Of a stretch of 64,000 nt of DNA, positions 1 to 16,309 are shown piece after piece. The notes under the pieces were generated by a model. The model saw nothing but the letters and a program-made list of their open reading frames with translations, was not told where the DNA came from and did not search any database. Every line of letters starts with the position of its first letter. Position 1 is the stretch's first letter. Source of the DNA: Thermogemmatispora onikobensis (GTDB lineage: Bacteria; Chloroflexota; Ktedonobacteria; Ktedonobacterales; Ktedonobacteraceae); assembly GCF_001748285.1 (NCBI RefSeq), contig NZ_BDGT01000006.1, positions 1 through 64,000 of the forward strand, in the 5' to 3' direction. The position numbers were made by a program, and so were the translations under genes.

Positions 1-38
1 CCCCCCCATAGGGATGGGACAAGACCAATTCGATCCGA

Positions 39-591
39 GTTTCAATCCCAGACGGGCTTCTTCGCTGCTTCTGACTAGTCAGGGAGGGACCTCGCCATTA
101 GCTGCTCCAATGTTTCAATCCCAGACGGGCTTCTTCGCTGCTTCTGACAAACGCACCGTTCTGATGAGCAGTGGCGAGCCGTTATCGTTTCAATCCCAGA
201 CGGGCTTCTTCGCTGCTTCTGACGGTGTCCTTCACTGGCATAGCGATTGGCCACCTGAGTTTCAATCCCAGACGGGCTTCTTCGCTGCTTCTGACCGGAA
301 AATAGCTGCTGCCACCCGGACAATCTCCGGGGGTTTCAATCCCAGACGGGCTTCTTCGCTGCTTCTGACCCACCTCAATGGTGAGACCGGCCCCTCTCGC
401 ATCATGTTTCAATCCCAGACGGGCTTCTTCGCTGCTTCTGACATGCCAGAGTCTTCCTGGATGGCCTCAAGGGAATAAGGTTTCAATCCCAGACGGGCTT
501 CTTCGCTGCTTCTGACCCAGACGATAGAGCCGATTCGCCTCATCCCACAGTCCAGTTTCAATCCCAGACGGGCTTCTTCGCTGCTTCTGAC
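39..591 (-). CRISPR. CRISPR array, 8 repeats and 7 spacers, continues beyond the left edge
   Basis: Eight identical 37-bp repeats start at 39, 112, 187, 259, 333, 406, 480 and 555. Spacers are 35-38 bp. Bases 1-38 are spacer-length and probably a further spacer, so the array is cut by the window. On the minus strand every repeat ends GGGATTGAAAC, the 3' end usual in type I and III systems where ATTGAAAC becomes the crRNA 5' handle. This puts transcription on the minus strand, with the leader side at 592 onward, in agreement with the promoter at 604-632. No degenerate repeat is seen at the right end, as expected next to a leader. No cas gene is in the window, so the subtype cannot be fixed. 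Confidence 0.97.
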
Positions 592-603
592 AGCCCCTCC
601 TTC

Positions 604-2766: not shown

Positions 2767-5700
2767 ATGCCCCCAGCAGGAACGCAGATGAGCACATCCG
2801 GGAATCCTTCTCCAGGGGAGCGGCGGGCCCTGGTGGTAGGGGTCAATGAGGCCCCTCGTTCAGGCCAGGCCCCCCTGGCCACTGCGGCCAGGAGCGCTCT
2901 GGCGCTCGCCACTGCCTTGCAGGAGCACGGCAGCTTTGCGCTGGTCGGGGGAGGACCGCTGCTCAACGAGCAGGCGACCACGGAGCGGGTGAGACAGGCC
3001 CTCTATGCCCTCCTCCAGGATGCCCGTCCGCAGGATCTACTGCTGTTCTGCTTTTGCGGTCATGGCGTGCCGTGGCTGCTGCCGACAGAGCAACGCGAGG
3101 TGTATCTGGCGACGCACGATTTTGACCCGGCAGTGCTGCCGTTCGATCAGCGGGCGCACCTCTCGCTGAGCTGGCTGCGAGAGATGCTGCTGGATACCCC
3201 CGAGGTCCAGGCAGGGACGGTGATGGTACTGCTGGACTGTTGTCATGCCGGGCAGGCGACGACGCAGGCGCAGCGTGAAGCACAGCCGCTGGAGGGACTC
3301 ACCCAGGCGGTCCGGCACCTGTGGCACGCCGCTCTCGGAGGAGAGGAGCGGCCCCAGCGAGGAGCGCGGATCGTTCTGGCAGCTACCTCAGCGCAGGGCA
3401 CAACGCAGGAGCAGCGGGCGCAGGGCTGGACCCAGCTGGTCAGCGCCCTGCTGCCGGCGCTACGAGGAGCGCGTCCTGATCTGCTCGATGCGCAGGGGCA
3501 GCTCACCTATGAGCGGTTAGTGGATGACTTGCGCCAGCGACTGCCAGGGCTGACGACGGAAGCGACGGGGCAGGGGCGCGTGGTGCTGGCGACGTTTCAC
3601 CAGGGAGACCAGGCGGTACAGCAGGCGACACCGACAGCGCTGCGGGAATACGCGCGGCACCCGTTCAGTGAGGCCTGGCTGCAGGAGCGCGTGCAGCAGG
3701 TGGTCGGTCGAGAGCAAGAACTGCAAGCGCTGTGCCAACGGATTGAGTGCTTGCGGTCCACAGGCGGGTATCTGGTCGTCACGGGCGTGGCTGGGCAAGG
3801 GAAGAGTAGCCTGTTGGCCAGGCTGGTCACCACCTTCCCCTGTGAGCAGGAGGGAGGCCAGCCAGCAGCCTGGACGGTGCTGGCGCATTTCATCCCCCCT
3901 CAACCGGGGCCGGGCTATCAGGACATCTTGCTACGACACCTGGTCGCCTCGCTGCTGCTCAGGTCGGGCCTGGAGCCGTTCTCCGTGGAGCATGAGCCGC
4001 TGGCAGGGCTGCAACTGGCGCTGCGGCGGCTGCTGGAGGAGGTGGTCAAGCGAACGGGTCCGGTGCTGTGTTGTCTCGATGGGTTGGACCAGCTCCCAGA
4101 GGACAGCGCAGGCCGGGTGGTTCTCCCCTTGCCTGAGGGAGGGGAGCCAGTGCCCGGGGTCGTGTTTGTGCTGGGGACACGGCCCAGCCTGCTGCCCGTC
4201 CTGCAGTGCTATGAGCCGCTGGAGGTATATGCGCTGCCAGCGCTGAGCAGGCCAGACTGGCAGCGGCTGCTGCACCAGCGGCTGGCGGCCCACTCGGGTA
4301 TCCGGCGAGCGCTGACGCCGGAGCTGAGCGAGCAGCTCTATCTGCACATGGAAGGAACACCGCTCTTTCTGGATCTGGCGGCCCGCTTGCTGGCCACATC
4401 TGGTTCTGACGAGCTCTCTCCGGCAGCGCTCGCCCGCCGGGTAGCGGCGAATCCGCACCAGCTCTTCTCACTGGCGCTGGATCAGTGGGGACGCCGCCAT
4501 CCTGGAGCGCAGACCCGCTGGGGCCGGGTGATCCAGCCCCTGCTGGGGATCTTGCTGGTAGCGGCAGAGCCACTAGAGCGACGGCAGCTGAAAGCGCTGG
4601 TGCAGCTCTGGCAACGGCGTGAAGGGGGAGGCAGGTCCATTGATGGACAGGAACTGAAGCTGTGGCTGGAGCAGCTTGGAGGAGTGCTGGTAGAAGAGCG
4701 AGTGGATGGAGTGATTTCGTACCGTCTCTATCATGAGAAGTTTCGAGAGTACTTGCGCCGGGACCCGGACCAACCGGAGCGAGACTATCTCTTTGATGAA
4801 GAGGACGAGCAGCGGTGGCACGCGCTGCTGGCGGCCTGGTGTGAGGAGGAGGGGCTGGCGCGAATCTGGCAGGAGAGCCTGGAGAGGAGTGAGCAGAGAC
4901 GGCGGCACTATGCGCGCCGACATTACGTCTGGCACCTCTTCCAGGCGGGTCCATTGCAGTGGGGACGGCTCCTGGCCCTCCTGGATGCAGGCCACTATGG
5001 ACAAGAGAAGGTGCGCTGGGAGGTGAGTGGGCAGCAGTATGCACAGGACCTGGTGCTAGGACAGCGGGTGGCGGCCAGTGCGGGGGAGAGCGCGGAGGGG
5101 CTGCAGCGGTTGCCAGCGCTCTGGCGCTCCACGCTCTTACGTGCCAGCTTGAGTGGGATCGCAGACCGCTATCCGCTGGAGGCGTTTTCGCTCATGGCGG
5201 CGTTGGGGCAGGAGAGCAAGGCGCTGGGGCTGGCTGCATTGCGGAGTGACCCTGGAGAGCAAGCGAGGGCGTGGCTGGCGATCGCCCAGTGGTGGACCAG
5301 GGAGCCGGGGCGAGCCAGCGAGGTGCTGCAGCTTGGATACAGGGTGCAGCAGACAGCGCAGCGGATCGAGAGCGATGAGTCGCGGACCCAGGTGATGGAG
5401 GAGCTGGTCAGGGTGCTGCTGGAAGCGCAGTGCTACCAGGAAGCGGAGGAAGTCAGTCGGGCCATGGGGGACAGCTGTCTGCGGGCAGAGACGCTGGAAG
5501 CACTGGCGAAGGCGCTCAGGCAGGCGCAGCGTGAAGAGGAAGCAGCGCGGGTCGAAGAGATGAGCCGTGCCCTCTCGGACCGTCTCTCGAGGTCGTGGGA
5601 CCTGCTGAACCTGAAGAAAGCGCTCGCGCGGATGCACCGCACTGAGGAGGCGACGCAAGCCCAGCACGAAACGGAGGAAGGGAGTCGTTCCACCCCGGAC

Positions 5701-6450
5701 CGCTTCAGGCAGGCGGGGGTGCTCCTGCAGGCCCGGCGCTATCAGGAAGCGGAACGAGTCATCCGCGCTCTCCCGGACCGCTTCGGGCAGGCACGCGCGC
5801 TGACCAGACTCGCCGAGACGCTTGCGCGGGGGTCGTCCCTTGAAGAGGCGAGGAGGATCTGGCAGGAGGCGGAGGGGATGGTCCGGGCGAGTGAGGCCAG
5901 CTTCAGGCGAGCGCGAGCACTGATCGACCTGGCGGAGGCGCTCGCGCTCGCCCAGCGCACTGAGGAAGCGGAGCAAGTCTGGCGTGCAGCGGAGGACATG
6001 AGCCAGGCGCTTGCCGATGGCTTCTGGCGAGCGAGGGCCCAGGCGGAGCTGGCAGCAGCACGGGCGCGGATACAGGCTCCTCAAGAGACAGCGCAAGCCA
6101 TGCACCTCGGGAAACATTGCCAGGAGGTGGCGCTGGTGAGGAGGCTCGGGGAGCTGCTGACAGAGGGCCAGCGCTTCCAGGAGACAGCAGAAGCGATCCG
6201 CGCACATCGGGATCACGGGCTGCAGGCAGCGCTATGGAGACAACTGGGAGAGGCACTGGTTCGCGCTGACGCAGCCGCACACGGGTTCCTGGCTCTGCTG
6301 CAGCGTGCCTGGCTTGAGGCCCGCGGAGAACCCGACGCCCTCGCCCGCTTCTCCCTGGTCACACCCCTGGTCGTGCGTTCTCCCGAGCTGGGGCTGGCCC
6401 TGTTCGAGGCCTTCGGCTGGGTGGATCGTTTCCTGCAACATGCTCTGTGA
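2767..6450 (+). CDS. Caspase-NACHT ATPase with TPR-like repeats, putative suicide effector
   Basis: A 1227-aa protein led by a strong AGGAGGTGA site. Residues about 15-250 form a caspase-like (peptidase C14) domain with the catalytic pair His99 (in FCGHG) and Cys159 (in DCCHAG). A P-loop STAND/NACHT-type ATPase follows, with Walker A GVAGQGKSS (Lys346), a Walker B-like strand ending near Asp438 (CLDGLDQL) and a sensor-like GTRPS. From about residue 700 to the end there are helical repeats, many ending in ALA-xxLA patterns with Glu/Ala-rich 34-40-residue spacing, read as TPR-like. In characterised bacterial systems such proteins sense phage infection through the repeats, oligomerise through the ATPase and release the protease. 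The target here is unknown. It probably works with the small gene upstream. Confidence 0.85.
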   Translation: MPPAGTQMSTSGNPSPGERRALVVGVNEAPRSGQAPLATAARSALALATALQEHGSFALVGGGPLLNEQATTERVRQALYALLQDARPQDLLLFCFCGHGVPWLLPTEQREVYLATHDFDPAVLPFDQRAHLSLSWLREMLLDTPEVQAGTVMVLLDCCHAGQATTQAQREAQPLEGLTQAVRHLWHAALGGEERPQRGARIVLAATSAQGTTQEQRAQGWTQLVSALLPALRGARPDLLDAQGQLTYERLVDDLRQRLPGLTTEATGQGRVVLATFHQGDQAVQQATPTALREYARHPFSEAWLQERVQQVVGREQELQALCQRIECLRSTGGYLVVTGVAGQGKSSLLARLVTTFPCEQEGGQPAAWTVLAHFIPPQPGPGYQDILLRHLVASLLLRSGLEPFSVEHEPLAGLQLALRRLLEEVVKRTGPVLCCLDGLDQLPEDSAGRVVLPLPEGGEPVPGVVFVLGTRPSLLPVLQCYEPLEVYALPALSRPDWQRLLHQRLAAHSGIRRALTPELSEQLYLHMEGTPLFLDLAARLLATSGSDELSPAALARRVAANPHQLFSLALDQWGRRHPGAQTRWGRVIQPLLGILLVAAEPLERRQLKALVQLWQRREGGGRSIDGQELKLWLEQLGGVLVEERVDGVISYRLYHEKFREYLRRDPDQPERDYLFDEEDEQRWHALLAAWCEEEGLARIWQESLERSEQRRRHYARRHYVWHLFQAGPLQWGRLLALLDAGHYGQEKVRWEVSGQQYAQDLVLGQRVAASAGESAEGLQRLPALWRSTLLRASLSGIADRYPLEAFSLMAALGQESKALGLAALRSDPGEQARAWLAIAQWWTREPGRASEVLQLGYRVQQTAQRIESDESRTQVMEELVRVLLEAQCYQEAEEVSRAMGDSCLRAETLEALAKALRQAQREEEAARVEEMSRALSDRLSRSWDLLNLKKALARMHRTEEATQAQHETEEGSRSTPDRFRQAGVLLQARRYQEAERVIRALPDRFGQARALTRLAETLARGSSLEEARRIWQEAEGMVRASEASFRRARALIDLAEALALAQRTEEAEQVWRAAEDMSQALADGFWRARAQAELAAARARIQAPQETAQAMHLGKHCQEVALVRRLGELLTEGQRFQETAEAIRAHRDHGLQAALWRQLGEALVRADAAAHGFLALLQRAWLEARGEPDALARFSLVTPLVVRSPELGLALFEAFGWVDRFLQHAL

Positions 6451-6479: not shown

Positions 6480-8363
6480 CTACATGGCAATCTGCTCAAC
6501 TGCACACCGTTGATCCCAGTAGCCAATATATTCGCGTCCGTCGGGCTCAAGCCGACCGAAGAGATATTTGCGGTGAAGGTTGCGGTTGAAATATTCACAG
6601 CTCATCTCTGAGATGTGCATACAGGCATGGCAGGCTCCCATCTCTTCCAGGCAAACCGGATCGTAAATGCAGATCTCACCGGCATTCATGACTGCTCGAA
6701 GATGTTCATGCAGTGTCTGCTCAAAGAGGGTATACAGTCCTCCAATCGTGAATGCCGTTCGGTTATTGCTGTAGAGAACGAAGGAGAGCGCGCGGGGAAA
6801 GAGATATTCACTTAAGCTGGTCCGATCGAACCCGCTGAGAATGACAGCCTGGCGGAGTACCAGATGACTAAACGAGTGGACCAGCCCGAAGATTGCCTGG
6901 GTGACCGGCTGATCCCTGGTGATTTCCCGGAAGGGATTCACGTTCTTCATGCGGTTGAGAATCCAGGCGTGCAGCGTTGCCTCGTCGTCTGCGGCAGGCT
7001 CCTCTGTGATCAGCCCATTGAGCCTGAGCCAGCGCATCACACGCCGGAGGTTCAGGCGGAACAGCAATGCTTCAGTTTCCGTCGTCTCGGTATAGAGAGG
7101 CGTACGCGGGTCCTTCGACTGGAGGCGGGGAAAGGCACGAATCACGGTCTCATCAGCCTCACGACGGTCGCGGGTAAATCCGATGAGGACCGTTGTCACC
7201 GGAAAATCCCCGATCAGATGCACATCGGCCAGTCCCGTACTCAGTAGAGCCTGGCGATAGGCTTCCTGGTAGAGAGGGAGTCGACTGCTGCTCTCCTGAC
7301 GTGCCTTTTGCTCAAGGTCCTTGATGGTCACGACGTGCAGCGATTCTCTGATGCGAACGAACTCCAGTAACTCCCTTCCTGTCTCTTCAAGATCCTCTCC
7401 CTGCAGCGTGATCAGCTGCCTGGCCTGAGCGAGAACCCGGCGGCGATGAGCTCTTCCTGCCCCGGCAAACTCCTGTTGTAATGCATCCAGGTGGGCCTGC
7501 ATGATTGCTCGCCGCTCCGGGGACGCGGTACTGATATGCCGTGCCAGTGTGGCCAACGCATCCTGATCTGCAGCCTGTCCCTGAGCGCTTCCTGCCAGAT
7601 CGCGCAGACGGAGATCAGGTCCGTGATCAAAGATCCGCAGGCAGGCGGCAATGGCCAGCCACTGGCGTTCCGGATCCCTCAGGATGAGGTCGAGGTCCTT
7701 TCCTGGAAGATTGATCAGTGTCCGATACTGAGGATAGTAGGAAGCGGTGGCCCGATGAACGATGGGCCGCATTTGCTTCTTGGGGAGGTTGCAGTCATCG
7801 CAGGTGCCCTCGATAATGGGAGACTGGAAGGAGCAGAGCCGGCATTGCCAGCGGAACTGAGCATACTTCTGACTGTCACCTGTGTTCAGCCAGAGGTGCT
7901 CGCGCTTATGACGCGGACAGGATGGCAGGATGAAGGGTCGGATATGACCACAGCTATGGATCAGGACATGGTGCAACTGAATCAGGCGTCCCTTGCAGTG
8001 ATGACAGCGCAACTCCGGGTTGTACTGACTGACTTCTCCTACGTTATGGTAGAGGATAGCCCGTCTACACCCTTTGTTGGTGCATTCGAAGAGCAGCGGG
8101 AAGATTTCTGCCTGGACTGCCCTGGGAGTGACCAGCACGTAGCGGTCCTGCTGATGAATATCCGGAAAGCCTCGACGGCGCTCTTCTGGCCATTGCTGGA
8201 GCAGCCAGGCAACCCGATCAAGCACATAGGGTTTGTTCAGCTGTCGCTCGGGGTCATCACTTGCCTGAACATTGGTGACCTTGCAGATGAATTGCCCCCC
8301 CTCAAAGTCGAAGGTTTTCTCGGGCAGGAAATTGAAGAGAATCTGTTGTTTTCCTCGCCTCAT
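6480..8363 (-). CDS. drmB: DISARM protein DrmB (DUF1998 domain)
   Basis: A 627-aa protein, last gene of the DISARM operon, starting five bases after the drmA stop. The N-terminal half has paired cysteines that look like zinc ribbons (CTNKGC, CHHC, CRLC, CDDC). The C-terminal third is a DUF1998 module: HSFSHLVLRQA, then a cysteine cluster running CIYDPVC, GACHAC, EMSC. DrmB is a core DISARM subunit that forms a complex with the DrmA helicase and helps it act on incoming DNA. The gene ends 29 bp from the convergent caspase gene, so the two defence units share a terminator region. No drmC (phospholipase D) gene follows. Confidence 0.85.
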   Translation of the reverse strand: MRRGKQQILFNFLPEKTFDFEGGQFICKVTNVQASDDPERQLNKPYVLDRVAWLLQQWPEERRRGFPDIHQQDRYVLVTPRAVQAEIFPLLFECTNKGCRRAILYHNVGEVSQYNPELRCHHCKGRLIQLHHVLIHSCGHIRPFILPSCPRHKREHLWLNTGDSQKYAQFRWQCRLCSFQSPIIEGTCDDCNLPKKQMRPIVHRATASYYPQYRTLINLPGKDLDLILRDPERQWLAIAACLRIFDHGPDLRLRDLAGSAQGQAADQDALATLARHISTASPERRAIMQAHLDALQQEFAGAGRAHRRRVLAQARQLITLQGEDLEETGRELLEFVRIRESLHVVTIKDLEQKARQESSSRLPLYQEAYRQALLSTGLADVHLIGDFPVTTVLIGFTRDRREADETVIRAFPRLQSKDPRTPLYTETTETEALLFRLNLRRVMRWLRLNGLITEEPAADDEATLHAWILNRMKNVNPFREITRDQPVTQAIFGLVHSFSHLVLRQAVILSGFDRTSLSEYLFPRALSFVLYSNNRTAFTIGGLYTLFEQTLHEHLRAVMNAGEICIYDPVCLEEMGACHACMHISEMSCEYFNRNLHRKYLFGRLEPDGREYIGYWDQRCAVEQIAM

Positions 8364-8368
8364 TGCTC

Positions 8369-11300
8369 TTACCCCCTGATGGCCTGGCTCATGAGAAGGC
8401 GCGAGTCCTTGTCTGGAATGATATCAATCTGCTCATCAACATCCCGCAGGCTCTGCATCGGCTGTTCTGTCAGATTCTCGGAGGTGAAATTCTTCTGAGG
8501 ATTGCGCAGCATATCAAAGTACTCGCTGACCTTCTCCTGGATCACCTGTGCGAATTCCTGGCCACTTTCCTGCCTGCCTGTGCAGTAGGCCTCATTCAGC
8601 CAGGCGACCATTTCATCCGGTCGCAATCGGCGGCTTTCCAGGAGCTGGCGCACCTGTTTGCTGAAGTAGAGGGACTTCTTTCCTCCTCCTCCCAGCCTGA
8701 GGTTATAGTCATTCAAGAGCAAGGCCATGAAGAGTCCCGGGATGGTACGCCGGATGGCAAACTTGCTCCAGCGATTCACAGGAACGGGTTCCACCAGCCG
8801 ATCAAGATATTCGTGATACTTGGTGAAAAGGTGGTAGTGACTCTGATCCCGCTCTCGGGCCGGGTTGAAGCAAACGAAGACCAGGCCCGGGTGATCACGT
8901 CCAACCCGGCTGGAGGTCTGGATATATTCGGCAGTCTGGCGAGGCATTCCAAAGAAACACAGACAGTTGAGCCGCTCTACATCCACACCGTGGGAAATCG
9001 TGCTGGTCGCTGTCAGTGATCGCAGGCGCCGGGCAAAATCTGGATCAGGTTGTTCCAGCTGATCCAGGATCCTGGCGACCTCGGAAAAGGTGGTCGCACT
9101 GGTGATTGAACGGCTATCTACCTCGCTGTAGCCAGCCTCGGTCAGCGCTCGATTGAGTTGTCCCTCAAAGCTCTGATCAAGCCGATCCCCCTCCCGTCTG
9201 GACAGCAGATACGTCACAAAGACTTCATAGTGAGAAAGCATGCCCAGGAACCTGGCAGGGCTGTCCACCGAAGTCAGCTTCAGCCGGGCAATGGCTCCTG
9301 CAGGATCACGCCGCAGATCCTCAATGGCCTTGTGGTAGAGCTCTGCGATGCGAACAATGGCATTGATATGGGTATAGTTATGTGGCATGATTCCGATGAA
9401 GAGGCGTCGGAGGTTCTGAGCCTCAGTGGTAGCATAAAAGGATTCTCCTAACTCGGGACCGGGTACGGGGAACCGACGGGCCTTGCGGTTATACAGGTGC
9501 TCGATCTGATGCTCATATTCCTCGATAGTAGCAGTGGCAGCGATGATCTTCATGCGGACCTTTTGCATGCGCTGCTGATATGAGTCGATGAAAGTCTCAT
9601 AATGAGCATCGAAGGCGCCGATCTCCTGGCGGAGCAGGTGGAGCTCATCTTGTATTTGCAGAACCGGTGAAGGATCTTTCAGTCTGACCGGGATAAAATC
9701 CTTTGGTTTCACCGTGCAGGCGTATTTCTCTGTGCATTCTCCCAGGCTCAGGTATCCATGTTGAGGGCACTTGTGGGAGACAGCGCCAAAGAGATGACTG
9801 ACCTTGCGCTCGTAGCCGATGGCGGTAATCTTGTCAATCGTGCCAACCAGCACGGTGGGGAGATAGCGGTAGATCTCGTTATCCACAATGAAGACGGGCA
9901 GAATGCCCTTGCGAACAGCCTCGGAGCAGCTGGGATTGGTACAGCGATGGACCAGGCGGACTGTCTCCTCCTCCAGATCCATTCTCACACTGTGCTGACC
10001 GCAGAAAGGACAGCGAGGAATGGTCAGAAAGCTTTGCAGAAGCTGAGGCTGTCTCCAAAGGCGGTTGAGCCAGGAGTCCTGGCCGTTCTGGTTGTAGCTG
10101 ACGAGCCGGTTGGGCGTGTTATCTGCTCCAACCAGATAAGCCACGCTAAACGGATCGTACTCGTCGGTGTTGATGGGAGCGGTCTGACGGCGGAGACATT
10201 CAGCGGCGGCCAGAATGTCTGCCATGCGCTGCAGCTGTTGCAGAGAGAGCAGACGGAGGGGAAAACGCATCCAGGCTGTGACCCCAGCCGTTTTCCCTCG
10301 CAATCGGTCGAAGAACGCGGCACAGACAATCAGACCCAGATAAGCCTCAGTTTTGCCGCCGCCAGTGGGAAACCAGAGGACATCCACATAATCCCAGTCC
10401 TCACGCCCTTCTGGGAGGTCATACTCGCGGGCGGCAATGGCAGGTAGCTGCGTGACGATGTAGACAATCTGAAAGAGACGCCAGGAATCGTGGCGGCTGG
10501 CACTGGCAAAGGTCCGGTTCATCAGCTGAAAGGCTCGCAGCAGTGTGCTGTAGCGCTCCAGAACGCTGATTCCTCGCCGATAGCGAGCGATCTCCCCTGC
10601 AAATGCCTGCCAGTCACTCTCCGCTGCTGCCAGCATTGCAGCATCCCAGCCGGGATCTCGTTGCTGTGCCTGCAGTCTTTGCTCCCACTGGTGCAGATAC
10701 TGGTCCATTGCGTCAGCAATGGCGTGTAAAACGGGGATTGGCTCTTGGGCCAGATCCTGGAAGGCCGCCCCGGGCAGAGTGGACTCAACTCTATCCCGGG
10801 TGGTGTAGACCGGTTGCTGATAGATCGGCGTGTGCTCGGTTCGCACAGCATTCAGCTCTTCTACTCTGGCGACGCTGCAGTTGTGTCCTAACCCCCACAG
10901 GTGACGATCATAGCGATAATCTTTAGGAAGAAGATCGAAAACAAATGGCTGGAGCTCTGCATCCTGCCCCTCAACCTGCAGGCAAACATCAAACAGGTAA
11001 TGATCAGTGAGGGAGTGTTCTTGCCCATCGTCAGGGGAGTTGTTCAGAAGCATGAGTGAGATCTGAAGCAGGTCACCGACCACTGGACGTGCCTCGACCT
11101 GAAGCATGACCTGCCAGGACGGAAGCTCTTCCCGGCCAGTAGCAGCTATCTGGCGACAGAACCGCTCGAACGCTTCCTGATCGCTCAGTGCTTCAGGGGG
11201 AATTGCTGTACCTTTCGGAAGCTCATAGTAGCGGTGTGGATCGTTCAATATCTGCTGACAGGCGCGCTCCAGTGCCCTGGTGATAGCGAGCTGCGTCATG

Positions 11301-11773
11301 TGGTCACTCAATCGCTGGCGCCTGGAGAGCTGTTGCGGTATGGGTATGGCTACTGGTTCCACCTGAACACAGATCTTGCGATAGGCTATAGCCCATCGTT
11401 CCCGTGACCGGGGCTGCTCCTGGTCAGAGGTTTGGCGGGGATAGCCGGCGAGACGACGCTGATGCTCCAGATCGGGGAAAATTCGATAGTACACATTGAA
11501 GGCTGGCTGGACGAGTAATCGTGCCTTCTCTCCCCTGGGCTTGACCCTGATTTCAAGCCCCATTGAGGAAGGGGCCAGGCGCGAGAAAAGATCATCGTCA
11601 GGATCAGGGCCGTCCATCTGTTGAGGACGATTGGCCAGAGAGCCGATAAAGTAACGGTTGCGAGGGCGGTCATCCCGGCAGATATCCTCGCTTCGGCCCG
11701 TGAGCTGATCAAGCAAGCGGTGTTGCAGATACCGAGCCAGTCTGATCTCATCCAGGCGTTGAGGCGTTACCAT
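8369..11773 (-). CDS. drmA: DISARM helicase DrmA
   Basis: A 1134-aa superfamily 2 helicase. Motif I is FPTGGGKTEAYLGL near residue 468, motif II is the DEAH-like DELHLL near residue 709, motif III is ATATIEE, and motif VI is QTSSRVGRDHPG near residue 953. A four-cysteine zinc site (CPFC ... CTNPSC) is inserted near residue 590. The layout is that of DrmA, the DNA-binding helicase of DISARM. The ATG overlaps the TAA of the preceding gene (ATGGTAA), and the downstream gene follows after five bases, so translation is coupled. The first 450 residues match no other domain I can name and are typical of long DrmA proteins. Confidence 0.88.
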   Translation of the reverse strand: MVTPQRLDEIRLARYLQHRLLDQLTGRSEDICRDDRPRNRYFIGSLANRPQQMDGPDPDDDLFSRLAPSSMGLEIRVKPRGEKARLLVQPAFNVYYRIFPDLEHQRRLAGYPRQTSDQEQPRSRERWAIAYRKICVQVEPVAIPIPQQLSRRQRLSDHMTQLAITRALERACQQILNDPHRYYELPKGTAIPPEALSDQEAFERFCRQIAATGREELPSWQVMLQVEARPVVGDLLQISLMLLNNSPDDGQEHSLTDHYLFDVCLQVEGQDAELQPFVFDLLPKDYRYDRHLWGLGHNCSVARVEELNAVRTEHTPIYQQPVYTTRDRVESTLPGAAFQDLAQEPIPVLHAIADAMDQYLHQWEQRLQAQQRDPGWDAAMLAAAESDWQAFAGEIARYRRGISVLERYSTLLRAFQLMNRTFASASRHDSWRLFQIVYIVTQLPAIAAREYDLPEGREDWDYVDVLWFPTGGGKTEAYLGLIVCAAFFDRLRGKTAGVTAWMRFPLRLLSLQQLQRMADILAAAECLRRQTAPINTDEYDPFSVAYLVGADNTPNRLVSYNQNGQDSWLNRLWRQPQLLQSFLTIPRCPFCGQHSVRMDLEEETVRLVHRCTNPSCSEAVRKGILPVFIVDNEIYRYLPTVLVGTIDKITAIGYERKVSHLFGAVSHKCPQHGYLSLGECTEKYACTVKPKDFIPVRLKDPSPVLQIQDELHLLRQEIGAFDAHYETFIDSYQQRMQKVRMKIIAATATIEEYEHQIEHLYNRKARRFPVPGPELGESFYATTEAQNLRRLFIGIMPHNYTHINAIVRIAELYHKAIEDLRRDPAGAIARLKLTSVDSPARFLGMLSHYEVFVTYLLSRREGDRLDQSFEGQLNRALTEAGYSEVDSRSITSATTFSEVARILDQLEQPDPDFARRLRSLTATSTISHGVDVERLNCLCFFGMPRQTAEYIQTSSRVGRDHPGLVFVCFNPARERDQSHYHLFTKYHEYLDRLVEPVPVNRWSKFAIRRTIPGLFMALLLNDYNLRLGGGGKKSLYFSKQVRQLLESRRLRPDEMVAWLNEAYCTGRQESGQEFAQVIQEKVSEYFDMLRNPQKNFTSENLTEQPMQSLRDVDEQIDIIPDKDSRLLMSQAIRG

Positions 11774-14340
11774 GTCAGTACCGTTCCTTCCTTGAAGAAC
11801 CTCTGAGTGAGGGCAGGGGGGACCAGTAGTTCCCGCTGACTGACACTCACGACACGATGAATAGTGACACTGTCACGGAAATCATCCACATAGAGATTGA
11901 GCTCCTGGTCGATGCATTCCTCTGCGGCATCAGAATGAGTGCCACGCACTCCAGCCTGAATGATAACGCGATTCAACTGACGAGCCAGAGCCCTGTGCAA
12001 GGATCGAATACGGCGCAGGGCGCTGTCGATGTTCCGGTACTCCTGGATTAGAGCGTTATCCTCAAAGATGTAGCCAATCCGATAAATGTCTTCAGGATCG
12101 GAGGGCCCAAGTACCTGACCAGTGATCCAGCACCTGACTCCTGCAACCGACTGCATATGACTCCCTCGTTGCTGTAGCTCCTTGAGCAACTCTTCATATG
12201 TCAATTGTGCTTGCAGGAATCCTGCCCTGACAGATTCCTGCCAGTAGCGTACCAGCAGATAGGTGGCCCCCATTTTAGGATGACGTTTCACCCGCTCGAG
12301 AATGGCCTCGTAAAGGGTGCGGCGCTGCTGACCATCCACGAACAGCACCAGGTCACCTGCTCGTAGCCCTTCGACCACTCGCTCATCTATCTGCTCTGTC
12401 GCTGACAGGAATACCATCAGCCGGCTCTCTCGTGTTGCATAGCAGAAACCATCCTGGAAGTTCACACGGAAGGCAGGCACCAGAGACTTCTCAGAGGGCT
12501 GTTGTGGGAACACGGCAGAGGACACAGGGGGATGATCACTATCGCGATCATCAGTGCCGGGATCTCCTTCGTTCTGCTGATCATACTCAAGGGTCGAGAA
12601 GGGAGTCCAGATAGAGAGATCGGAAAACCCTGATAAAGCTGCGACCTTTCTGCGAGTCTGTCGGCTTCCTTCCCGACGAGCGAACTCTATGACAATGGGT
12701 GGGTGTCTCTGTCTGGAGGCAGCCTGGACCTGACTGGCTCCTCCAGAGACAAGAGCCTCCCAGGCTCGCTGGTGCGCCTCTTCACTGGCCAGTCTGCCCA
12801 GCGTCTGGTGCAGCGAGAGAAGTTGTTGCTCAATTCTCTCGGCTTCGTCGCGGTAAGCAAGGTAACGAATGTCTGGGGCTGCGGCGGTAAGAGCATACTG
12901 CCGGCGACCGTAACTGAACTGGCCGGGGAAGAGCAGGATATCAGCAGAGGAAAGAGTGCTCAGGTCTTTGTACGTAAGCAGGCGGATGGGAGCTTCCGCC
13001 TGCGCTTTGTCTGGCCTCTCCAGAGGCAGACGCTCGCGTGCACGCAGGCAAAGCTGCACCATTCGCAGACTGGCCTGATTGGGGCAGACTACTGCAAGGC
13101 AACCTGACTGACCTGACTGCTGTCGCTGCTCGCGTATCTGTTGAACCAGCGTATCATACTTGGGATTGCCCTCGAGCAGGGCCAGGCGCATATCCTTGAG
13201 ATCGAGCAATAACGATGGCCAGTAGATATTCTCGATCTCAGGTGCTTCAGTCCGGAGCAGAGGTGTAAACGCCTCCAGGTCAGCGATCCGTCGATCGATG
13301 GGGCGAAGACCCCAGAACCGGCTGGCCTCCTCTTCATAGACAGGGAGTGGCACCAGCAGCTGCAACATGGTGTAGAAGACGCCATAGGCAGCCTGAATCG
13401 CGCGACGCACGCCGGAGTCGCTTCGCCAGGGATCGGTGCGCTGAATAGTCCCCAGGTCATCCCACAGGCGGGAGGCTGCGTTTTCCAGCCTGGGATGGTG
13501 GCAAAGGACCAGCTGGTGGCGGATTCCACTGGCGATGTTGTTGAGCTGCCGTGCGCTGATCTCAAACGGGTGCCCCGGACCTGCGGCAGCTCCAGGCGAT
13601 GATTGGAGGGCCTCCGCCTCCAGCTCGGAGTGGCTCCAGGCCCATACAGGCACGCCTGCTTCTGCCAGATCTTGAAGATAAGGGGCAAATGGATTATTAC
13701 AGATATGTATAATGCAAGAAATTTTTCGATGTGCAGCAAGCTCATGGATGCGAGAGACCTGATCGATAAAGGTGTCGTCGGTATGGTCGACAATGATCGC
13801 TTTGATCCCGGTTGGCCAGGGCTTCTCAATCAGGAAGGGCCGCGGGAGATGATACAGCCGGGGAGGGTACCTGGCCTCTATACCTGGGGCAACAATACCA
13901 GCGGGCTCGCCGTCGTTGCGAATACGAGCAAGGGGAAAAGTTGCCGCCAGAGGTTCTTTGTCAACCCGTATATTCAGGTAATGCTCGCGGATCTCGGTCC
14001 GCGAACTGATCAGCATAAAAGAGGGCCTGGACCGATGGAAAAGTGTGGACTGGTGTCTCTCTGCAAAATCATAGATCAGGAGTTCTGCTGCCACCAGCGC
14101 TGCCAGATGGCAGATGGGGACGGGATAGACAATCGCCAGAGGACGACGATGGAGATACGCCTGCAGGCTCAGGCGCAGACAAAGCTGGTCCAGCCAGTGG
14201 AGCTGAATGCGATTGCGTCCATAGTAGAGGTGTTGTTCCTGGGCAAGGGTTACCAGATCGCGACCAGGGTGATGCTGCAGAACATGCCACCAGGGTGAGG
14301 TGGTGATTGCACTGTTTGAATCTTCATCTGCCGTCATCAT
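11767..14340 (-). CDS. drmE: DISARM class 2 protein DrmE
   Basis: An 857-aa protein from the ATG at 14340, chosen over an upstream TTG at 14379 because GCGAGG sits eight bases before it. It overlaps the end of the glycosylase gene by 17 bases. It has no enzyme motif that I recognise: the first 300 residues are Rossmann-like (YPVPICHLAALVAAE; AIIVDHTDDTFID), and the last 250 include GDLVLFVDGQ and long helices. Position between a C5 methyltransferase and drmA, and length, fit DrmE, the protein that marks class 2 DISARM. The name rests partly on context. Confidence 0.75.
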   Translation of the reverse strand: MMTADEDSNSAITTSPWWHVLQHHPGRDLVTLAQEQHLYYGRNRIQLHWLDQLCLRLSLQAYLHRRPLAIVYPVPICHLAALVAAELLIYDFAERHQSTLFHRSRPSFMLISSRTEIREHYLNIRVDKEPLAATFPLARIRNDGEPAGIVAPGIEARYPPRLYHLPRPFLIEKPWPTGIKAIIVDHTDDTFIDQVSRIHELAAHRKISCIIHICNNPFAPYLQDLAEAGVPVWAWSHSELEAEALQSSPGAAAGPGHPFEISARQLNNIASGIRHQLVLCHHPRLENAASRLWDDLGTIQRTDPWRSDSGVRRAIQAAYGVFYTMLQLLVPLPVYEEEASRFWGLRPIDRRIADLEAFTPLLRTEAPEIENIYWPSLLLDLKDMRLALLEGNPKYDTLVQQIREQRQQSGQSGCLAVVCPNQASLRMVQLCLRARERLPLERPDKAQAEAPIRLLTYKDLSTLSSADILLFPGQFSYGRRQYALTAAAPDIRYLAYRDEAERIEQQLLSLHQTLGRLASEEAHQRAWEALVSGGASQVQAASRQRHPPIVIEFARREGSRQTRRKVAALSGFSDLSIWTPFSTLEYDQQNEGDPGTDDRDSDHPPVSSAVFPQQPSEKSLVPAFRVNFQDGFCYATRESRLMVFLSATEQIDERVVEGLRAGDLVLFVDGQQRRTLYEAILERVKRHPKMGATYLLVRYWQESVRAGFLQAQLTYEELLKELQQRGSHMQSVAGVRCWITGQVLGPSDPEDIYRIGYIFEDNALIQEYRNIDSALRRIRSLHRALARQLNRVIIQAGVRGTHSDAAEECIDQELNLYVDDFRDSVTIHRVVSVSQRELLVPPALTQRFFKEGTVLTW

Positions 14341-15049
14341 GGGTTTTGCCTCGCTGGATGTTTCCGGCCACTGCAGCAAGTCCGTAACTGCATTGTGCCC
14401 TCACGGGACACGTTTTACATAGGGGTAAACGCTTCTTCATACAGATTTGATCGGCCAGGTCCAGCAGTGCATATGTATAGCGGCGTGGTTGCTCCGGATC
14501 AACCAGCGTCGCAGCCAGGTGCTGAAAGAGCCGGCTCCGTCGCGAAGAATCTCTGGTTTCCAGGCCAAACAGCCGTCCCAGTATCCGCACCACGTTGGTA
14601 TCAATCAGTGGTTCTGGCAGATTCCAGGCGAAGCAGCGGACAGCGCTGGCGATATACTCACTCACACCCGGCAGAGAGAGCAGAGGGGCTTTCTCCTGTG
14701 GAACCTGACCGCCAAAGCGACTCATGAGCTCCTGAGCCATGTTCTGGATCAGGTCAATGCGCCAGCGCAACCCCAGGGAATAGAGGATCTGGTGTAGCTG
14801 TTCTCTGCTGGCCTGTGCCAGTAAAGCAACAGTGGGGTAGCGTGCAATGAATGCTTCGTAAACAGGCACTACCTGCCGGGCCTGAGTACGATGCAGCATG
14901 ATCTCGGCCATAAGGATGTGATAAGGGTCTCCCGTCTGACGCCAGGGAAAGGAACGAAAGTGTTCCTTTCCCCAGGAAAGGAGAGACTGGCGGAAGGTAT
15001 GGGCATCGATGAAGTGGTTGAGGTCCGATAGAGCCTGGAGATCGCTCAT
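14324..15049 (-). CDS. HhH-GPD DNA glycosylase of the MutY/Mig type, probable T:G mismatch repair
   Basis: A 241-aa helix-hairpin-helix glycosylase. It has FPWRQTGDPYHIL, EIMLHRT (49-55), the hairpin LPGVSEY (126-132), catalytic-type Asp150 in IDTNVVRI, and a four-cysteine iron-sulfur motif (Cys203, 211, 214, 220). EndoIII has Lys and MutY has Ser at the residue that is Tyr132 here; Tyr at this place is the mark of Mig, the thymine glycosylase from Methanothermobacter that is encoded beside a cytosine methylase. The gene likewise sits between a C5 methyltransferase and drmE, so it probably removes thymine made when the host 5-methylcytosine deaminates. The cluster spacing is C-x7-C-x2-C-x5-C, one residue longer than the usual C-x6-C-x2-C-x5-C. 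Plain MutY activity is the alternative. Confidence 0.8.
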   Translation of the reverse strand: MSDLQALSDLNHFIDAHTFRQSLLSWGKEHFRSFPWRQTGDPYHILMAEIMLHRTQARQVVPVYEAFIARYPTVALLAQASREQLHQILYSLGLRWRIDLIQNMAQELMSRFGGQVPQEKAPLLSLPGVSEYIASAVRCFAWNLPEPLIDTNVVRILGRLFGLETRDSSRRSRLFQHLAATLVDPEQPRRYTYALLDLADQICMKKRLPLCKTCPVRAQCSYGLAAVAGNIQRGKTHDDGR

Positions 15050-15092
15050 AACCCTACCTTACCTGACTGGCTCTGCAACCTTGGTTGGAAGA

Positions 15093-16280
15093 CTAGCGCA
15101 CTGGCAAGATAGAAGGAAGAGATGCTTCCTTCCTTTCACTGCTAATGCCTGCCAGCACTCCAGGCCGAATAGCTTCTGCTACAGCTCGGGCCAGCAGCGG
15201 TGGTACAGCATTCCCTAACTGCGAAAACTGCCGGGTGAAAGGACCTGCGAAGCGGAAACGATCCGGAAAGCTTTGCAGCCGCGCTGCTTCGCGAACGGAT
15301 ATCGTCCTGGGGGGCTCAGGCTCCCCCTGACGACTGGGATAAATATATCGATACGAATCTTTGCCAATGTGGGCCTCGATCGTCCAGCATGGCCGGTCGC
15401 GGAAAAGTTTCCGGTACTTGTCCTTGAAGATGTCGTCGCGGTAGCGTTTGTACTCTGCAGGCAGGTCGACATACTTTCCCCCCTCTGGCAGCAAGGCAAA
15501 GGCCGCCAGGTCCTGCTCATTATGAGCGCGGGTCTGATGATTATAGAGAAGGTCACCAGCTCCCTCTCGCATCTGTCGCTGGTAGCTGGTCAGTTCCCCA
15601 CGTGGCTCATAGGGCATCACATCCAGACGATGGCGATGAGGTACAATGGGAAGATCACTGATCGCCTGCCATACAGTTACAGGGTGCTGCCGATGGGTTT
15701 GTGGAGGCCAGCGAATGCCGTGTCCGAGACGATTTCCAATCATAAAGAGGCGCTTCCGGGTCTGAGGTACACCGTAATCATCAGCCTGAAGAATCCGGAA
15801 ATCTACCACATAGCCCATTTCCCGGAAACTACGACTGGCCTTTTCCAGAAGTAATTCCTCACCATCATGATAATATTGCATATCTGGAACATTTTCCATA
15901 ACGAAATAAAGCGGTTGTAGTACTCTGATAAAACGGATGAATTCTTGATAGTATTGATTTCGAGGATCATGGATATAGCCAGGGTCTTTATGCAGGCGGC
16001 GCAGCTTGCCTCTCCCTACTCGACTGAATCCCTGGCAGGGTGGTCCGCCAATAATAACATCGACTCGCTCCAGGTTACGCTCCTGAATAAAGCGCACTGG
16101 ATCTGTAATAAGGCAGATATCTCCTAAGTAACAGGCATCTCCGAAATTGAGGCGATGAGTGCGATAGGGGAGGACCTCCTTTTCAATCCCCAGACCGATC
16201 TGATAACCAGCCATTTCGAAACCCAGACTGAGCCCGCCAGCCCCACAAAAAAGATCGAGAACGATGGGCTTCTCCTTCAT
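15093..16280 (-). CDS. drmMII: DISARM cytosine-C5 DNA methyltransferase (DrmMII)
   Basis: A 395-aa C5-cytosine methyltransferase with the motifs in order: SAM-binding DLFCGAGGLSLGFE (about 7-20), catalytic GGPPCQGFSR (Cys near 82), ENV, QTRKR near 170, RLQSFPDRF near 335 and QLGNAVPPLLARAVAEAI at the end. The recognition domain between QTRKR and RLQSFP is short, so one target sequence is likely. In class 2 DISARM this enzyme marks host DNA so that the helicase complex spares it. It is first in the operon. The ATG at 16280 follows GAGGTGA; an in-frame GTG just before it is less likely. Confidence 0.9.
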   Translation of the reverse strand: MKEKPIVLDLFCGAGGLSLGFEMAGYQIGLGIEKEVLPYRTHRLNFGDACYLGDICLITDPVRFIQERNLERVDVIIGGPPCQGFSRVGRGKLRRLHKDPGYIHDPRNQYYQEFIRFIRVLQPLYFVMENVPDMQYYHDGEELLLEKASRSFREMGYVVDFRILQADDYGVPQTRKRLFMIGNRLGHGIRWPPQTHRQHPVTVWQAISDLPIVPHRHRLDVMPYEPRGELTSYQRQMREGAGDLLYNHQTRAHNEQDLAAFALLPEGGKYVDLPAEYKRYRDDIFKDKYRKLFRDRPCWTIEAHIGKDSYRYIYPSRQGEPEPPRTISVREAARLQSFPDRFRFAGPFTRQFSQLGNAVPPLLARAVAEAIRPGVLAGISSERKEASLPSILPVR

Positions 16281-16309
16281 CACTCACCTCGCGGTCAACA
16301 AAAGAGCCT

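What the first reader, a model, noticed from the sequence alone, without database searches (positions are those of the whole stretch)
6480..16280. DISARM class 2 variant: drmC absent, DNA glycosylase present
Gene order is methyltransferase, glycosylase, DrmE, DrmA, DrmB with overlaps of a few bases. Published DISARM cores include the phospholipase D protein DrmC; it is not in the operon or next to it. The glycosylase is embedded by overlap, so it is a true member. This may be an undescribed subtype in which a T:G repair enzyme protects the methylated host genome, a plausible need in a thermophile where 5-methylcytosine deaminates fast.
Basis: partly seen in the sequence, partly recalled or inferred. 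Interest (0 to 1): 0.8.

Follow-up and report, generated by a model that had tools for sequence, protein, structure and literature searches.

The report
DISARM operon carrying DNA-repair glycosylase
This is a DISARM anti-phage operon whose DNA-methylating enzyme comes paired with a repair enzyme that probably undoes the T:G damage caused by methylation; the pairing recurs in DISARM systems of other bacteria and an archaeon, whereas the missing drmC nuclease is ordinary.

Summary
The operon is real: C5-cytosine methyltransferase, HhH-GPD glycosylase, DrmE, DrmA and DrmB on the minus strand, 16283-6480, with junctions from a 43-nt gap to short overlaps. drmC is absent from the operon and the window. 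That is not special: drmC is reported as dispensable and often missing (PMC9142583), and about half of the DISARM-type loci I checked in this phylum lack it. The glycosylase is the interesting part. It is not the cell's MutY (that gene is separate) but belongs to the clade of Mig.Mth (PDB 1KEA), the thermophile T:G glycosylase. It recurs beside drmA/drmB in at least nine other loci, including a haloarchaeal plasmid. In three it is fused, or apparently fused, to the C5 methyltransferase in one reading frame. The same pair also sits in non-DISARM systems, including mesophiles, so it travels as a methyltransferase-plus-repair cassette rather than defining one DISARM lineage or a thermophile trait. 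Best reading: a divergent class 2 DISARM, drmC-less, that has acquired a methyltransferase/T:G-glycosylase cassette to repair deaminated 5-methylcytosine in host DNA. No enzymatic test exists. I found no paper describing a glycosylase in DISARM in the library searched.

The parts
15093..16283 (-). C5-cytosine DNA methyltransferase (DrmMII type), 396 aa, GTG start; first gene of the operon
   Evidence: PADLOC DrmMII E 7.8e-124, Pfam PF00145 E 8.8e-57, NCBIfam dcm above cut-off; motifs GPPCQG, ENV and QLGNAVPP intact in the translation
14324..15049 (-). HhH-GPD DNA glycosylase of the Mig.Mth (T:G mismatch) clade, 241 aa; catalytic Asp150 and Tyr132, four Fe-S cysteines, no MutY C-terminal domain
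   Evidence: Pfam PF00730; profile best match PDB 1KEA; tree; residue table; AlphaFold model pLDDT 85
11767..14340 (-). DrmE (about 857 aa from ATG 14340; ORF open from TTG 14379)
   Evidence: Pfam DrmE_C E 1.8e-40, NCBIfam DrmE_fam 152.9 bits over cut-off 80; start candidates
8369..11773 (-). DrmA helicase, 1134 aa, with GGGKT and DELH motifs
   Evidence: PADLOC DrmA E 2.6e-179; Helicase_C; sequence
6480..8363 (-). DrmB, 627 aa; last gene of the operon, no drmC after it
   Evidence: PADLOC DrmB E 5.1e-65; NCBIfam DrmB_fam below cut-off; DrmC profile finds nothing in the window
2767..6450 (+). Convergent neighbour occupying the place where relatives carry drmC: 1227-aa caspase-like/AAA-NACHT protein; not considered part of the operon
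   Evidence: same junction in sister species G059

Best explanation
A divergent class 2 DISARM operon (DrmMII-DrmE-DrmA-DrmB, without DrmC) that carries a methyltransferase-linked Mig-type glycosylase. Inferred working: the C5 methyltransferase marks host DNA as self. DrmA/DrmB, with DrmE, load on and block or unwind incoming DNA; in relatives DrmC, or another nuclease, may degrade it. 5-Methylcytosine made by the system deaminates to thymine, leaving T:G mispairs at the methylated sites. The glycosylase excises that thymine, and host AP endonuclease, polymerase and ligase restore C:G. It is thus a self-DNA repair accessory that lowers the mutational cost of the methyltransferase, not an effector. 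Shown here: gene content, recurrence, fusion to the methyltransferase in relatives, Mig-clade membership, no Vsr detected and a separate MutY in the genome. Inferred: substrate, direction of action, and any need for it in defence.
For: Family: a profile of mostly MTase-linked homologues hits 1KEA best (4e-69, against 5e-61 for the best MutY). An ML tree splits them, together with Mig.Mth, from MutY with 100/99 support. The window protein has F, R and A at Mig F27/R47/A50, a non-MutY Tyr at L187, and no C-terminal domain (A50 and L187 distinguish Mig.Mth from MutY, PMC2714593). Recurrence: MTase-glycosylase beside drmA/drmB in G092, G118, G094, G230, G165, L124, L130, L131 and the Natronobeatus plasmid. 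In 400 phylum genomes, six of the seven strongest matches lie at DISARM loci and the seventh is also beside a C5 MTase. Linkage to the MTase: one reading frame in G165 (644 aa) and L130 (642 aa), in L131 with the C-terminal part of the MTase, and outside DISARM in G319. Need: no Vsr found in the genome while the control search rings; own MutY is on another contig. Precedent: Mig.Mth excises T from T:G (PMC2714593); that its gene lies beside a C5 MTase on a Methanothermobacter plasmid is from my own knowledge.
Against: No biochemical data. A single-sequence search scores MutY structures slightly above 1KEA and the fold search does not separate them. The L187 position is Tyr, not Leu, in the window clade and Gln (MutY-like) in the fused clade, so substrate preference could differ. 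Most DISARM loci, even those with a C5 MTase, have no such glycosylase, so it is not essential. The cassette could be an unselected passenger here. The recurrence model was built from DISARM-linked proteins, so its ranking is partly by construction.
Confidence: 0.7

Rival explanations
1. Restriction glycosylase: the glycosylase is the effector that replaces the missing DrmC, excising bases from unmethylated or otherwise marked phage DNA to make abasic sites that break.
For: Restriction by base excision exists in the PabI family (PMC10273834); PADLOC labels the homologous model 'Type II nicking endonuclease'; the window and five other glycosylase-bearing DISARM loci have no DrmC downstream of DrmB.
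Against: Four glycosylase-bearing DISARM loci (G092, G118, L124, Natronobeatus) also have DrmC, and drmC absence is not associated with the glycosylase (p=0.38). Fusions are to the methyltransferase, not to the helicase. Tyr132 rather than the bifunctional Lys argues against AP lyase activity. The HhH-GPD fold is unrelated to PabI, and the nearest characterised enzyme is mismatch-specific.
Confidence: 0.1
2. Hitchhiker: the MTase-glycosylase pair is a mobile repair-equipped modification cassette that happens to supply DISARM's methylase; the glycosylase has no specific role in DISARM.
For: The same pair occurs with a GHKL ATPase and receiver protein (L118, L121, L123, G366; fused in G319) and alone on Thermus and Caldicellulosiruptor plasmids; the tree needs several switches of context.
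Against: Tight coupling into the DISARM operon and persistence across several DISARM layouts suggest retention. This rival overlaps with the best explanation on what the enzyme does and differs on whether DISARM benefits.
Confidence: 0.13
3. An extra MutY-like adenine glycosylase for A:8-oxoG repair, unrelated to methylation.
For: NCBIfam mutY and PDB MutY are the best single-sequence matches; the fold is the same.
Against: Scores 172.9 bits against a mutY cut-off of 286.5; lacks the 8-oxoG-recognition C-terminal domain; lacks the QQT-V and Gln/Glu adenine-specificity residues; falls outside the MutY clade (100/99); the genome has its own full-length MutY.
Confidence: 0.05
4. Anti-phage glycosylase against modified bases (for example 5mC, hydroxymethyluracil or uracil in phage DNA), as a type IV-like layer.
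For: HhH-GPD enzymes such as ROS1 excise 5mC (own knowledge; PMC10273834 mentions plant 5mC glycosylases); Mig.Mth also acts on U:G (PMC2714593).
Against: Excising 5mC would attack the host's own methylated DNA; recurrence tracks a C5 methyltransferase in nearly every layout seen, which favours service to that methylase.
Confidence: 0.02

Closest known systems
DISARM class 2 (DrmMII, DrmE, DrmA, DrmB, DrmC)
   Same: C5 methyltransferase, DrmE, DrmA and DrmB in one operon; DrmA nearest to class 2 loci of haloarchaea, Rubrobacter and Chloroflexota
   Different: No DrmC; an additional glycosylase gene; proteins below NCBIfam equivalog cut-offs
Mig.Mth (PDB 1KEA), thermostable thymine-DNA glycosylase paired with a C5 methyltransferase
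   Same: Same clade, size, catalytic residues and Fe-S site; linked to a C5 methyltransferase (the linkage of Mig.Mth itself is from my own knowledge)
   Different: Sits in a DISARM operon; about 30% identical; Tyr instead of Leu at position 187
Vsr (very short patch) endonucleases linked to Dcm-type methyltransferases
   Same: Proposed same purpose: repair of T:G from deaminated 5-methylcytosine (own knowledge of Vsr)
   Different: Unrelated fold (nicking endonuclease); no Vsr found in this genome
Restriction glycosylases (R.PabI family)
   Same: A DNA glycosylase encoded beside a modification methylase
   Different: Unrelated fold; there the glycosylase is the toxic restriction enzyme (PMC10273834)
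MutY A/G-specific adenine glycosylase
   Same: Same HhH-GPD fold and catalytic Asp/Tyr
   Different: No C-terminal domain, different specificity residues, separate clade; the genome's own MutY is elsewhere

Membership tests
DISARM | DrmA helicase and DrmB encoded together | tested here: met
   PADLOC DrmA 596 bits, DrmB 218 bits, adjacent with a 5-nt gap; NCBIfam equivalog cut-offs not reached
DISARM | DrmC phospholipase-D-like protein | tested here: not met
   DrmC profile finds none in the 64-kb window; genome PLD proteins are genus-core and below the NCBIfam DrmC cut-off. Not strictly required: dispensable and often missing (PMC9142583)
DISARM | Protection against phages in an assay | not testable with these tools
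DISARM class 2 | C5 methyltransferase DrmMII and DrmE rather than DrmMI/DrmD | tested here: met
   PADLOC DrmMII 412 bits; Pfam DrmE_C 139 bits; NCBIfam DrmE_fam above cut-off
Mig-type T:G mismatch glycosylase | Sequence clade with Mig.Mth, apart from MutY | tested here: met
   Tree split 100/99; profile best hit 1KEA
Mig-type T:G mismatch glycosylase | Ala at position 50 and Leu at 187 (Mig numbering) | tested here: inconclusive
   Ala57 matches A50; the 187 position is Tyr, neither Mig Leu nor MutY Gln/Glu
Mig-type T:G mismatch glycosylase | Excision of T opposite G | not testable with these tools
   Needs enzyme assay
MutY | C-terminal 8-oxoG-recognition domain and QQT/V/Q(E) residues | tested here: not met
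   241 aa without that domain; HRTQA and YTY motifs instead
R.PabI restriction glycosylase | PabI (half-pipe) fold | tested here: not met
   HhH-GPD by Pfam and by structure model

The most novel reading that the evidence does not exclude
The glycosylase is a working part of this drmC-less DISARM: a base-excision effector or co-sensor that acts on invading DNA through the methylase's recognition context, making this a DISARM that restricts by base excision instead of by a PLD nuclease.
Probability: 0.1. Interest if true: 0.8.

Novelty: new variant of a known kind. Interest (0 to 1): 0.46.

Why it matters
DNA methylation for self-marking has a mutational price, and how hosts pay it is rarely studied in defence systems. 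A recurrent methylase-plus-T:G-glycosylase cassette, sometimes one fused protein, across several DISARM layouts, a GHKL-ATPase system and archaeal plasmids makes the question directly testable: does the glycosylase lower C-to-T mutation at the methylated motif, and does it allow C5-methylase-based immunity to persist? It would also give annotators a marker gene: such 'MutY' genes beside methylases are at present called A/G-specific adenine glycosylases or hypothetical proteins.

Tried and rejected
Viral contigs for the glycosylase, single sequence and alignment: no relatives. Phage records: matches of only 28-35% identity, nearly all unannotated and probably MutY in bacterial DNA; not followed. 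Literature for DISARM with a glycosylase: no paper describing it among those held; the YprA/DISARM survey PMC12458937 does not contain the word glycosylase. Ofir et al. 2018 is not held. Other searches for Mig or Vsr with restriction-modification returned nothing. The idea that the glycosylase replaces DrmC was tested by distribution and not supported. Fusion in Thermus (suspected) rejected: the genes overlap by a few tens of bases. Growth-temperature proxy from amino-acid composition gave about 58 C for the window but is too noisy on short loci to compare contexts. The fold comparison cannot tell Mig from MutY.

Full report
What is there. The minus strand of the window from 16283 to 6480 carries five tightly packed genes: a C5-cytosine methyltransferase (396 aa), an HhH-GPD glycosylase (241 aa), DrmE (about 857 aa from the likely ATG at 14340), DrmA (1134 aa) and DrmB (627 aa). 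Family scans support each name: DrmMII 412 bits, DrmA 596 bits and DrmB 218 bits in PADLOC, and DrmE_C 139 bits in Pfam. NCBIfam places DrmA, DrmB and the DrmE equivalog below their curated cut-offs but DrmE_fam above it, so this is a divergent class 2 DISARM. Junctions: 43-nt gap, 14-17-nt overlap, 7-nt overlap, 5-nt gap. Calling all of them overlaps was not exact.

drmC. A profile built from eleven DrmC proteins of relatives finds none in the window. In the nearest relatives by DrmA (haloarchaea, Rubrobacter, Streptomyces, Chloroflexota G039), drmC follows drmB. Here that place is taken by a convergent caspase/NACHT gene. In the sister species G059 the same drmB-caspase junction exists, drmC is also absent, drmA is truncated at its 5' end and drmB is frame-shifted. 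The genome has four PLD proteins. Two of them (370 and 381 aa) match DrmC models below the NCBIfam cut-off, but relatives of these two occur in all six genus members searched, including members without a DrmA match, so I read them as housekeeping. DrmC is reported as dispensable and often missing, with a suggestion that other PLD nucleases stand in (PMC9142583). In the phylum sample, 25 of 43 assessable loci have no drmC scored after drmB; one of these, L062, was missed only by the distance rule. Presence of the glycosylase does not go with absence of drmC (p=0.38). Haloplanus rubicundus gives a further DrmE-A-B locus with no drmC listed (that gene table is incomplete). The missing drmC is therefore ordinary.

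What the glycosylase is. A single-sequence search gives MutY slightly ahead of 1KEA, but a profile of thirteen mostly MTase-linked homologues puts 1KEA, the Mig.Mth T:G glycosylase, first. In a maximum-likelihood tree all MTase-linked proteins and 1KEA are separated from the MutY proteins with 100/99 support. The window protein keeps the catalytic Asp and Tyr and four cysteines, has no C-terminal domain, and has Ala at Mig position 50. Position 187 is Tyr, where Mig has Leu and MutY Gln or Glu (roles of these positions from PMC2714593). The genome's own MutY is a separate 328-aa gene with the MutY residues. No Vsr gene was found, with a working control. The AlphaFold model is confident (pLDDT 85) and of the MutY/Mig fold, which does not discriminate between the two.

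Does it recur in DISARM? Yes. DISARM-linked cases besides the window: G092 (MTase-glycosylase-DrmA-DrmB-DrmC), G118 and L124 (a different C5 MTase, then glycosylase-DrmA-DrmB-DrmC), G094 and G230 (MTase-glycosylase-helicase, convergent with DrmB-DrmA), G165, L130 and L131 (DrmE-like, DrmA, DrmB, then MTase and glycosylase in one reading frame; in L131 the frame holds only the C-terminal part of the MTase), and the Natronobeatus ordinarius plasmid (MTase divergent, then glycosylase-DrmE-DrmA-DrmB-DrmC). The Halarchaeum island, whose DrmE is 82% identical to that of Natronobeatus, has no such gene annotated between MTase and DrmE and none was detected by tblastn, so the gene is gained or lost between related copies. 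In 400 genomes of the phylum the seven strongest matches stand clear of all others (308-392 bits, then 240 and below). Six lie at drmA/drmB and the seventh is beside a C5 MTase and a GHKL ATPase. That model was built from the six, so the ranking is partly by construction. The scan of GTDB species genomes added L124, L130 and L131 independently; of 29 loci, the 12 with a neighbouring MTase include 7 DISARM loci, and the other 17 have no MTase hit; the 14 of these checked for specificity residues look like MutY.

Context outside DISARM. The same pair precedes a GHKL ATPase and a receiver-domain protein in L118, L121, L123 and G366, and is fused in G319 before the same two genes. It stands with other genes on haloarchaeal, Caldicellulosiruptor and Thermus plasmids. 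On the tree the label 'DISARM' changes at least three times on well-supported branches, six by parsimony. The pair is thus a cassette that moves between systems. Hosts include Stenomitos frigidus, haloarchaea and subsurface MAGs, so thermophily is not a requirement.

Interpretation. The simplest account is that the cassette supplies a C5 methylase together with the repair activity for its own mutagenic by-product. Fusion to the methylase, co-occurrence with C5 methylases in different systems, Mig-clade membership and the absence of Vsr fit this. An effector role is possible but less likely: the partner is the methylase, four glycosylase-bearing DISARM loci also keep DrmC, and the catalytic site looks monofunctional. 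Nothing here shows enzyme activity.

Comparison and novelty. Every component is known: DISARM class 2, and T:G glycosylases beside C5 methylases (Mig.Mth; the gene linkage is from my own knowledge). Their recurrent combination was not described in any paper I could search, including the recent DISARM/YprA survey (PMC12458937). I file it as a new variant of a known kind.

Noticed in passing
window 38-594: Start of a CRISPR-type array: eight copies of a 37-nt repeat (GTTTCAATCCCAGACGGGCTTCTTCGCTGCTTCTGAC) at 72-75 nt spacing, at the contig start; the sister species has a related repeat array at the same place.
   Followed up: no
window 2767-6450; L058 12126-15809: A 1227-aa caspase/AAA-NACHT gene is 99.8% identical between the two species, while the adjoining drmA/drmB are 91-94% identical and decayed in the sister; this suggests recent exchange or different selection across a sharp boundary.
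   Followed up: partly
L118 4965-10269, L121 4361-9814, L123 8358-14034, L177 5403-10597, L178 546-6045: A recurrent operon of C5 methylase, Mig-type glycosylase, protein with two GHKL ATPase domains and receiver-domain protein; I did not recognise it as a named defence system, and PADLOC gives only weak type II enzyme hits.
   Followed up: partly
L122 8006-10732: In Stenomitos frigidus a C5 methylase appears fused to a poorly conserved Mig-like domain and is followed by a second, intact Mig-type glycosylase.
   Followed up: no
L179 8173-12510: Methylase-glycosylase pair directly upstream of both PD-Lambda-5 genes, so the cassette may serve that system too.
   Followed up: no
L131 11060-16591: The DISARM locus with the methylase-glycosylase frame lies next to a Druantia DruE helicase gene.
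   Followed up: no
L059, L060, L108, L111, L124: Several Chloroflexota DrmC proteins are short (160-250 aa) compared with about 300-350 aa in haloarchaea, Rubrobacter and Streptomyces.
   Followed up: no
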